Source: Paracyclopina nana
Taxonomy: Eukaryota; Arthropoda; Copepoda; Cyclopoida; Cyclopettidae
Direction of reading: 5' to 3'
NCBI GenBank assembly: GCA_019096065.1
Contig: JAGUCH010000005.1
Span: 2,852,001-2,916,000 of the forward strand
DNA: 64,000 nt
Part shown: positions 42,549-55,475 of the stretch, piece after piece
Numbering within the stretch: position 1 is the stretch's first letter
Layout: each line of letters starts with the position of its first letter
Notes under the pieces: model-generated
Databases searched by the model: none
The model's input: only the letters and a program-made list of their open reading frames with translations
Told to the model about the DNA's origin: nothing
Made by a program: the position numbers and the translations under genes

Positions 42549-42695
42549 TCAGGTAACATCATTATCAGCATGTGTAGTTTGCAGCAATGCGAACATTTTT
42601 GCAAATATTTGACGGAAATTCTTCGAGGTTTCTGGTGGTTTGCTATTGGCTTCTTCGAGTTCTTCTTGCAATGACACAGGTTGCTCATCTTGCAT
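42549..42695 (-). CDS. CDR2 homologue, shared exon 5 (C-terminus)
   Basis: Acceptor TTTTCTAG, phase 0. It codes 48 residues: a short acidic helix, then [20 protein letters not shown], the conserved C-terminal motif of CDR2/CDR2L, and a TGA stop. This motif ties the exon to the upstream coiled-coil exons across a 622-bp intron. Confidence 0.85.
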   Translation of the reverse strand: MQDEQPVSLQEELEEANSKPPETSKNFRQIFAKMFALLQTTHADNDVT

Positions 42696-54600: not shown

Positions 54601-55475
54601 AATTCTGCTTTACCCATTTCAGGGCTAAACTGGCTTGATTGGCACTAAAAAGGCTCTTTCAGCTGCTATCTCCCCACCATATATACCGCCATGTGGCCAA
54701 TAATCATGGGTGCTTTAAGGACTTATGCCCCTTACATTGCGCTTCCGTTTGCCGCAGTAATTGGCATCATTGGCTACACAGTTGAGGGCAGTTTATCAGA
54801 CAAATACACACCTTGGCGAGAATCTGTGGAAGACAGGAGGGCAACAAGAATGTTGGAAGAGGAGCTTCTTCATAATGAACAAGACGGAAAAAGTTCCACA
54901 GTGAGTAGCCTGAAGAATCCGGAATTTGTTCCAAAGAATATTTTTGAGAAGAACGCTTCCCCAACTTTGAAGAAAGTTTAGCTTAGCTGCTGCAGCAGCA
55001 GCAACGTACAGAAGTTTCATTTGCCAAATTGAGCAATAGAGCCAATAAAATTCGTTCTGAACACACATTGGAAAAAAGTACACTTACCAGACTCGTAGTC
55101 AACGCCACAATGAATGCACCTGGAGTGGTGCAAGGAATTGCTGGTGTTTGGCTGAATTGAAGTCAACTGGCCATTACTGCTATGCAACAAGGGCTGCTGG
55201 TCATTTTGCTGTTGTATTGATGAAGTGTTAAGGTCAGATCTGGCAAACTCCATGTGGTGCAATGAAATGCCTGGCTCGTATTCATACTCGAGATCTTCCA
55301 GGCCTTCACCGTGGACATGATCCGAGGTGCCAGTTGAGCTTTGGTCATCTTCACACTGGCTCAAGAGAGAGGTGATGCGAGGGTCTGGTAATATGACAAT
55401 TCTAGAGTTGCTGGTGACATACTTCCAGTCTTCATTGGGGTCTCCACCCCCAGGATCAGGCCCGTTTTCAGCCAT
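42549..55475 (-). CDS. CDR2/CDR2L (centrocortin) family coiled-coil protein
   Basis: Minus-strand gene with five shared exons: 45310-45198, 44370-44222, 44161-43577, 43420-43318 and 42695-42549. Any of three upstream ATG exons can precede them (55475-55088, 51652-51418, 46203-45933). Predicted products are 494, 443 and 455 aa; human CDR2 is about 454. [27 protein letters not shown] and [15 protein letters not shown] match the N-terminal coiled coil of CDR2/CDR2L almost word for word. The C-terminal [16 protein letters not shown] matches the family's terminal PPEYKALFKEIF motif. A Glu/Lys-rich coiled coil with a Ser-rich acidic insert lies between them, and a CRKC motif sits in the fourth shared exon. 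Family knowledge: CDR2 is a cytoplasmic neuronal antigen; fly centrocortin acts at centrosomes. The role here is inferred from homology. Confidence 0.9.
43318..43420 (-). CDS. CDR2 homologue, shared exon 4
   Basis: Acceptor CTAATTAG, entering with one base that completes Arg, and donor GTGAGG in phase 0. The 34 codons include [13 protein letters not shown]. The following frame toward 43276 is intronic read-through. Confidence 0.8.
43577..44161 (-). CDS. CDR2 homologue, shared exon 3 (central coiled coil)
   Basis: After a 60-bp intron the split codon ag|c (Ser) joins [16 protein letters not shown], which aligns with the CDR2 segment after KILSL. A Lys/Arg-rich patch, a Glu/Ser-rich acidic region ([16 protein letters not shown]) and a second coiled coil follow. 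Donor GTTAGT in phase 2. Confidence 0.88.
44222..44370 (-). CDS. CDR2 homologue, shared exon 2
   Basis: Acceptor TGCCTTTCAG, phase 0, starts YLTKQ, the continuation of the family QEIEYLTKQ motif. It codes 49 residues of coiled coil and ends in phase 2 at AAAAAG|GTACCA. Confidence 0.9.
45198..45310 (-). CDS. CDR2 homologue, shared exon 1 (family signature)
   Basis: Acceptor TCTTTTGCAG, entering in phase 1: two bases plus one from the first exon give Asp, then [20 protein letters not shown], the hallmark of CDR2/CDR2L. The donor GTAAGA is consensus, phase 0. In human CDR2 the same signature follows a short unrelated N-terminus, which agrees with variable first exons here. Confidence 0.93.
45933..46203 (-). 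CDS. CDR2 homologue, alternative first exon C
   Basis: ATG at 46203, 90 codons plus one base. The donor GTAATT at 45932 is modest and leaves phase 1, completing Asp with the shared exon. The N-terminus is Ser-rich with an acidic end (ELECLQGPD). It is the closest first exon, 622 bp upstream of the shared exons. No stop interrupts it. Confidence 0.7.
46204..51417. other. Intron/intergenic stretch within the CDR2 locus
   Basis: AT-rich, no recognised exon. The plus-strand frames at about 49658-49813, 49823-50071 and 50533-50724 look somewhat protein-like but cannot be linked by convincing splice sites or matched to a family. Confidence 0.5.
51418..51652 (-). CDS. CDR2 homologue, alternative first exon B
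   Basis: ATG at 51652 with a purine at -3, 78 codons plus one base, and a consensus GTAAGC donor in phase 1. It codes an acidic Asp/Glu run followed by a Ser run, then a Cys/Trp-containing end (CQACTDCW). The phase and strand fit the shared exon at 45310. Confidence 0.7.
51660..54600. other. Intronic stretch between first exons A and B
   Basis: No exon recognised. Contains a foldback repeat at 53406-53582. A plus-strand frame at 51955-52236 (92 codons) has no domain or splice support. Confidence 0.5.
53406..53582. repeat. Imperfect inverted repeat (foldback), about 177 bp
   Basis: Left arm (53406-53471) and reverse complement of the right arm (53519-53582) share ACTTGCTGCTT, GGACT, GAAGGTAA, TGCCCT and GGTGAGTAAA blocks in order, about 80% identical. 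A spacer of about 47 bp carries its own small hairpin (CCTCGCTTCGCTCGG). It is probably a small non-autonomous element or relic; no target duplication is clear. Confidence 0.6.
54691..54981 (+). CDS. SMIM12: Small integral membrane protein 12 homologue
   Basis: Single-exon frame of 96 aa; human SMIM12 is 92 aa. The MWP start, the RTYAPY motif, one hydrophobic segment (about residues 11-32) ending in IGYTVEG, and a basic/acidic C-terminal half with [13 protein letters not shown] all match SMIM12 in order. It is a one-pass membrane protein of unknown biochemical role. It lies antisense within the CDR2 locus, between first exons A and B. It lacks introns although its neighbours have them, which could reflect an intronless ancestor or a retrocopy. 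Confidence 0.92.
   Translation: MWPIIMGALRTYAPYIALPFAAVIGIIGYTVEGSLSDKYTPWRESVEDRRATRMLEEELLHNEQDGKSSTVSSLKNPEFVPKNIFEKNASPTLKKV
55044..55049 (+). terminator. SMIM12: Polyadenylation signal of SMIM12
   Basis: AATAAA, about 63 nt after the stop. Cleavage would fall at about 55065-55080, just short of the splice donor of the antisense first exon A (55087). Confidence 0.5.
55088..55475 (-). CDS. CDR2 homologue, alternative first exon A
   Basis: ATG at 55475 in good context (G at -3 and +4), 129 codons plus one base, and a consensus GTAAGT donor in phase 1. The N-terminus is Gly/Pro- and Gln/Ser-rich and acidic, with a C-x2-C pair (CIHC) near its end. Strand and phase fit the shared exon 10 kb downstream, and no other minus-strand acceptor in between is preferred. 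It could instead begin a separate unrecognised transcript. Confidence 0.7.

What the first reader, a model, noticed from the sequence alone, without database searches (positions are those of the whole stretch)
42549..55475. Three mutually exclusive first coding exons for a CDR2/centrocortin gene
Exons A (55475-55088), B (51652-51418) and C (46203-45933) each open with ATG and end in phase 1 at a GT. Each donates the G of the Asp codon that opens the shared [10 protein letters not shown] exon. Their N-termini (129, 78 and 90 residues) are unrelated to each other. This points to three promoters and three protein isoforms differing only in the N-terminus, which may set localisation at centrosomes or in cytoplasm.
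Basis: partly seen in the sequence, partly recalled or inferred. Interest (0 to 1): 0.7.

Follow-up and report, generated by a model that had tools for sequence, protein, structure and literature searches.

The report
CDR2 gene with three starting exons
A single gene in what looks like an arthropod genome, related to the human motor-linking protein CDR2, seems able to start from three different exons and to end with either of two others; the sequence supports this, but there were no RNA data to prove it.

Summary
Exons A (55475-55088), B (51652-51418) and C (46203-45933) each open with ATG after a nearby in-frame stop, stay open for 129, 78 and 90 codons, and end in phase 1 at GTAA donors that fit exon 45310-45198. 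Three such candidates are far above shuffled sequence (mean 0.115, maximum 1 in 200 shuffles), less so against real genome sequence (0.85 per 10 kb of strand). Codon usage favours B and A, hardly C. The gene has no second copy at E <= 0.001.

Best reading: alternative first coding exons, probably with separate promoters. The junction lies directly before the CC1-box (LAAELG), the dynein light-intermediate-chain site of related adaptors, so isoforms would differ beside the dynein groove (inferred). A and C may be weakly related. Centrosome targeting is untested. Alternative first exons are common, so interest is moderate; the anchored/soluble choice is the more unusual part. RNA would decide.

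The parts
55088..55475 (-). Exon A, candidate first coding exon, 129 codons plus one base
51418..51652 (-). Exon B, candidate first coding exon, 78 codons plus one base
45933..46203 (-). Exon C, candidate first coding exon, 90 codons plus one base; weakest donor and codon score
45198..45310 (-). Exon 2, first shared exon, encodes the CC1-box [10 protein letters not shown]
44222..44370 (-). Exon 3, coiled coil
43577..44161 (-). Exon 4, coiled coil and acidic linker
43318..43420 (-). Exon 5, ends in phase 0 at GAG|GTGAGG
43101..43247 (-). Alternative end 1: tail-anchor exon with C-terminal hydrophobic segment and stop
42549..42695 (-). Alternative end 2: soluble C-terminal exon with stop
42354..42359 (-). 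AATAAA, the only AATAAA found downstream of both stops in the stretch scanned (41500-46300)

Best explanation
One CDR2-family gene on the minus strand has three alternative first coding exons, A, B and C, most likely driven by separate promoters. Each splices through a 9.8, 6.1 or 0.6 kb first intron to the same exon at 45310. Shown in the sequence: start codons, phase, donors, shared acceptor. Inferred: transcription and splicing. The shared exon starts three residues before the CC1-box core LAAELG, where related adaptors bind the dynein light intermediate chain. I infer that all isoforms keep the dynein site and that the swapped N-termini, probably disordered, tune access to it or add partners in different cells. 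A second choice at the 3' end (tail-anchor exon or soluble exon) would set whether the adaptor sits in a membrane or is recruited by a partner.
For: Structure and phase. Excess over shuffles. Codon score of A and B, and negative score past all three donors. Among phase-1 candidates of at least 40 codons and 4 donor bits on the minus strand between A and exon 2, those not belonging to A, B or C (48510 and 48281) score -7.3 and -4.1. No second copy of the gene, or of A, at E <= 0.001; none of B at E <= 1; for C only one weak other hit at E 0.7. CC1-box and its role: passages of PMC7655957. CDR2 called a dynein adaptor that binds kinectin: passage of PMC13231004. In the genome's own TRAK-like and two BICDR-like loci the CC1-box is preceded, in the same open frame, by helix-prone sequence; before the box A, B and C are less helix-prone (mean 0.58-0.77 against 0.32-0.45 kcal/mol).
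Against: No RNA evidence, and no related species could be examined (searches found none). C has a weak codon score and the weakest donor; A's codon score is tied by an opposite-strand frame. Real-genome background for such candidates is 0.85 per 10 kb. The first introns of A and B are long, and A's would span SMIM12 on the other strand. The CDR2 name rests on recalled human sequence: no Pfam model reaches its cut-off, the full isoform A gave no HAP1_N match at all, and in the core fragment HAP1_N is one of ten weak coiled-coil-type matches. The CC1-box list in the passage of PMC7655957 does not name CDR2. No Spindly motif was found with a loose pattern. Folds of A and C alone had mean pLDDT 35 and 40, so they say nothing firm about disorder.
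Confidence: 0.66

Rival explanations
1. Only one or two of the three are real first exons; the rest, C most likely, are chance open frames with a usable GT.
For: C has codon score +4.4 over 90 codons, another frame of its strand scores higher, and its donor is the weakest. Such candidates occur at 0.85 per 10 kb of strand in real sequence, and the form-match at 60938 shows that a strong donor can follow a non-coding frame.
Against: At most 1 such candidate in any of 200 shuffles. Score past C's donor is clearly worse than within C. C is the nearest to exon 2, has an initiator-like TCAGTT 33 nt before its ATG, and shows weak similarity to A.
Confidence: 0.22
2. A and/or B start separate transcripts (small genes or other genes on the minus strand) and are not joined to the CDR2 core.
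For: A stays open to 154 codons in all from the preceding stop if unspliced; both lie 6 to 10 kb away, and SMIM12 on the other strand lies between A and B.
Against: The codon score is negative past both donors, both donors are strong and phase-1 like C's, and no other positive-scoring phase-1 candidate was seen between them and exon 2. I did not search for every possible internal exon.
Confidence: 0.12
3. The first exons arose by tandem duplication of one first exon, so A and C are diverged copies and not independent inventions.
For: A-C BLASTP 21.2 bits, E 0.002 for one comparison; shuffles as good 0.001-0.009 with three BLOSUM matrices; 0 of 367 and 0 of 323 real protein segments as good.
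Against: PAM250 gives 0.20-0.27; with BLOSUM80 reversed A against B reaches the same score as A-C; three pairs were tested; both sequences are Ser/Thr rich; no DNA repeat links them.
Confidence: 0.2

Closest known systems
Human CDR2 / CDR2L
   Same: Core from [10 protein letters not shown] on: 54 of 111 identical without gaps to human CDR2 as recalled. CDR2 is described as a dynein adaptor that binds kinectin and regulates ER morphology (passage of PMC13231004; the primary paper was not held).
   Different: None of the three N-termini beats shuffles against the recalled CDR2 and CDR2L N-termini (fractions 0.16 to 0.88). As far as I recall human CDR2 has no membrane segment; here an alternative exon has one.
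Drosophila centrocortin (cen)
   Same: Fly relative of CDR2 (recalled). The host genome looks arthropod: 80 Chitin_bind_4 matches (that this family is expanded in arthropods is recalled).
   Different: The cen passages seen (PMC9210305; PMC8595238) concern centrosomes and mRNA localisation; the word isoform occurs in neither main text. The antisense partner in a title cited there is ik2; here the nested antisense gene is SMIM12.
Milton/TRAK isoforms
   Same: [quoted passage not shown] That the difference is N-terminal is recalled.
   Different: A different gene. The genome has its own Milton/TRAK-like locus (L040) with the CC1-box well inside a longer open frame.
BICDR/BICDL adaptors
   Same: CC1-box DLxLAAELGKxLLExN shared with loci L042 and L043; the BICDR name is recalled.
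   Different: For L042 similarity to CDR2 does not beat shuffles after the CC1-box, though only 19 residues of that part were compared. The residues before the box lie in the same open frame and are helix-prone.

Membership tests
CDR2 family | CC1-box followed by the CDR2-type coiled coil (EIEYLTKQ ... YEQL) | tested here: met
   Score 274 against recalled human CDR2, shuffle maximum 86; after the CC1-box 194 against 69.
CDR2 family | Match to a curated family model | tested here: inconclusive
   Pfam: HAP1_N below its cut-off for the B and C heads (16.9 and 18.4 against 33.9 bits), none for full isoform A; 13.7 bits for a core fragment. No CDR2-named model appeared. NCBIfam was not searched.
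CDR2 family | Vertebrate-type N-terminus before [10 protein letters not shown] | tested here: not met
   None of A, B, C beats shuffles against recalled CDR2/CDR2L N-termini. I do not take this as defining, since N-termini may vary outside vertebrates.
CC1-box dynein adaptors | AAxxG in the first coiled coil | tested here: met
   AAELG, one occurrence, four residues into the shared exon; motif from passages of PMC7655957
CC1-box dynein adaptors | Spindly motif C-terminal of the CC1-box | tested here: not met
   A loose pattern written from memory matched only within the CC1-box itself; activating-adaptor status is therefore not claimed
Alternative first exons | Distinct transcription starts spliced to one common exon | not testable with these tools
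   Phase and donors fit; no RNA data
Tail-anchored proteins | Single membrane segment near the C-terminus | tested here: met
   Best 19-residue window (mean hydropathy 2.49) ends five residues before the stop
Tail-anchored proteins | No N-terminal signal peptide | not tested
   No signal peptide predictor was run

The most novel reading that the evidence does not exclude
One CDR2 gene makes a 3 x 2 set of dynein adaptors. Promoter choice swaps the cap placed directly on the dynein-binding CC1-box, and 3' splicing decides between a built-in tail anchor and a soluble tail. An arthropod CDR2 would then sit in membranes by itself, where the human protein is recruited by kinectin.
Probability: 0.3. 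Interest if true: 0.6.

Novelty: new variant of a known kind. Interest (0 to 1): 0.36.

Why it matters
CDR2 has lately been described as a dynein adaptor at the ER, while its fly relative is studied at centrosomes. A gene that swaps the segment beside the dynein site and also chooses between an anchored and a soluble end could explain how one family serves both places. It would give natural isoform swaps with which to test how N-terminal caps control a CC1-box adaptor. Alternative first exons as such are ordinary.

Tried and rejected
Relatives: close-relative scans of viral contigs and genome contigs with the shared core found none, so no cross-species test of the exons was possible. Paralogues: none by six-frame search (E <= 0.001, E <= 1); a hit to C on contig C4 at E 0.7 was set aside. 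Solved structures: one match at E 0.28 to an acidic stretch, taken as unrelated. Kinectin-type domain PF05104: no match, but nothing rang in the controls either, so absence is not shown. COX1 was sought to name the organism and not found. Structure prediction of A and C alone was uninformative; B was not folded. Comparison of the N-termini with recalled vertebrate ones gave nothing. The length-matched codon null did not discriminate. For the soluble end, similarity to the recalled human CDR2 C-terminus was weak (27 of 1000 shuffles as good). The tail-anchor exon has almost no codon signal (0.026 bits per codon).

Literature: the primary papers on CDR2 and kinectin, on centrocortin in cleavage furrows and on cen/ik2 were not held. 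Searches touching CDR2, CDR2L or centrocortin and alternative first exons or promoters with dynein adaptors showed no report of these exons in the titles and abstract openings listed. Four of these lists were cut: 30 of 134, 20 of 42 (15), 20 of 57 (35), 10 of 166 (62). No paper was read whole; only passages found by term were seen.

Full report
What was checked. The window is G000:C5:2852001-2916000 of a 92 Mb genome in 10 contigs. The gene lies on the minus strand. In-frame stops stand 3, 3 and 5 codons before the ATGs.

Gene model. From any of the three, the spliced frame runs through 45310-45198, 44370-44222, 44161-43577 and 43420-43318, then to either 43247-43101 or 42695-42549, with one stop, at the end. 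Isoforms are 494 (A), 443 (B) and 455 (C) residues with either end. First introns are 9777, 6107 and 622 nt by these coordinates.

Is it more than chance? With the criteria used (at least 78 codons, donor at least 5 bits, phase 1), three candidates stand on the minus strand of 45311-56000, against a mean of 0.115 and a maximum of 1 in 200 shuffles. The same criteria give 34 candidates in 400 kb of real strand (0.85 per 10 kb), which includes true exons. A fourth candidate of similar form at 60938-60707, outside that stretch, has a strongly non-coding score (all). So form alone is suggestive.

Codon usage. Whole-exon scores are A +23.7 bits, B +18.6 and C +4.4; past the donors they are negative (-6.5 over 23 codons, -1.6 over 11, -9.1 over 21). 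Results against: only B is best of its six frames. A is tied by an opposite-strand frame (0.19 against 0.18 bits per codon) and C is beaten by another frame of its strand (0.17 against 0.05). Shared exons of the gene themselves range from 0.06 to 0.23, so short exons are hard to judge. The codon model came from 43 long open frames (17550 codons) out of 56 found in the sampled stretches, some actin loci and the window; 13 were left out as shadows, low complexity, doubtful, or this gene itself. Because of the tie for A, noticed on re-checking, I lowered confidence from 0.68 to 0.66.

What the gene is. No Pfam model reaches its cut-off; HAP1_N matches weakly over the start of exon 2 in the B and C heads, not in full isoform A. 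After the box, the genome's own TRAK-like and BICDR-like segments do not beat shuffles. There is no second copy at E <= 0.001.

Why the junction matters. Passages of PMC7655957 describe the CC1-box, with conserved alanine and glycine (AAEYG in BICD2), as the pocket for the dynein light intermediate chain helix; CDR2 is not in the list of adaptors in that passage. In this gene exon 2 opens with DLQLAAELG, so the alternative residues end directly before the box. In the Milton-like and two BICDR-like loci the residues before the box are in the same open frame and helix-prone. In A, B and C they are less so, and the residue before the shared Asp is S, N or D, which are good helix caps by recall. 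I infer that the coil starts at the box and that the heads differ in what they place beside it. A and B are acidic (net -16 and -13), C hardly (-3). This is a post hoc reading and untested.

The other end. The claim that isoforms differ only at the N-terminus is incomplete. Exon 43247-43101 encodes a strongly hydrophobic segment whose best window ends five residues before the stop. Only 8 of 20863 acceptor-like sites in the window and the 20 sampled stretches give a C-terminal membrane frame of that kind; the searched set includes this locus. Its codon score is near zero. Exon 42695-42549 encodes a soluble tail. No AATAAA or ATTAAA lies between the first stop and 42359, and a good donor (AAG|GTAATT, 8.4 bits) stands 84 nt after that stop, so the anchor exon may be a cassette whose mRNA ends at the same site. 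A passage of PMC13231004 describes CDR2 as a kinectin partner on the ER; an anchored isoform would not need that. Absence of kinectin here was not shown.

Relation of the heads. B resembles neither A nor C. A and C share a weak co-linear similarity: BLASTP 21.2 bits, E 0.002 for one comparison; shuffles as good 0.001-0.009 with three BLOSUM matrices but 0.20-0.27 with PAM250; 0 of 367 and 0 of 323 real protein segments as good; but with BLOSUM80 reversed A against B reaches the same score. Three pairs were tested, so this is a lead, not a result.

Setting. SMIM12 (PF15990, E 6.3e-30; one match in the genome) lies on the plus strand at 54691-54981, between A and B, with an AATAAA at 55044. A transcript from A would run antisense through it, which could make use of A compete with SMIM12 (inference).

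Precedent. Alternative first exons are common. [quoted passage not shown] No report of these CDR2 exons appeared in the searches named in Tried and rejected, which cover only open-licence papers and partly cut lists.

Verdict. The three-first-exon model is likely right, B and A better supported than C. Promoters and function are inferred. The tail-anchor choice is the feature most worth following.

Noticed in passing
43247-43101 and 42695-42549 (-): Two alternative phase-0 last exons of the same CDR2 gene: tail anchor versus soluble tail.
   Followed up: partly
54691-54981 (+): SMIM12/UPF0767 gene nested on the opposite strand between exons A and B, AATAAA at 55044.
   Followed up: partly
55485-55468 and 51675-51649 (-): Short upstream frames that end just past (A) or overlap (B) the start codon; possible translational control. 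Another at 46289-46200 overlaps C's start.
   Followed up: no
53394-53592: Imperfect palindrome of about 200 bases (arms of 44 and 30 nt, 84% and 83% complementary) between A and B, possibly a foldback element.
   Followed up: no
37271-39025 (+): Long open frame with C2H2 fingers and a homeodomain, looks like ZEB/zfh1 (Pfam; name recalled).
   Followed up: no
61290-61832 and 62038-62466 (-): Two open frames without a Pfam match above cut-off, with phase-0 donor candidates and positive codon scores.
   Followed up: no
exons A, B and 5: Each encodes a CxxC (RCIHCG, LCQAC, MCRKC); meaning unknown.
   Followed up: no
L042, L043: Two BICDR-like CC1-box loci on contig C6 of the same genome (name recalled).
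   Followed up: partly
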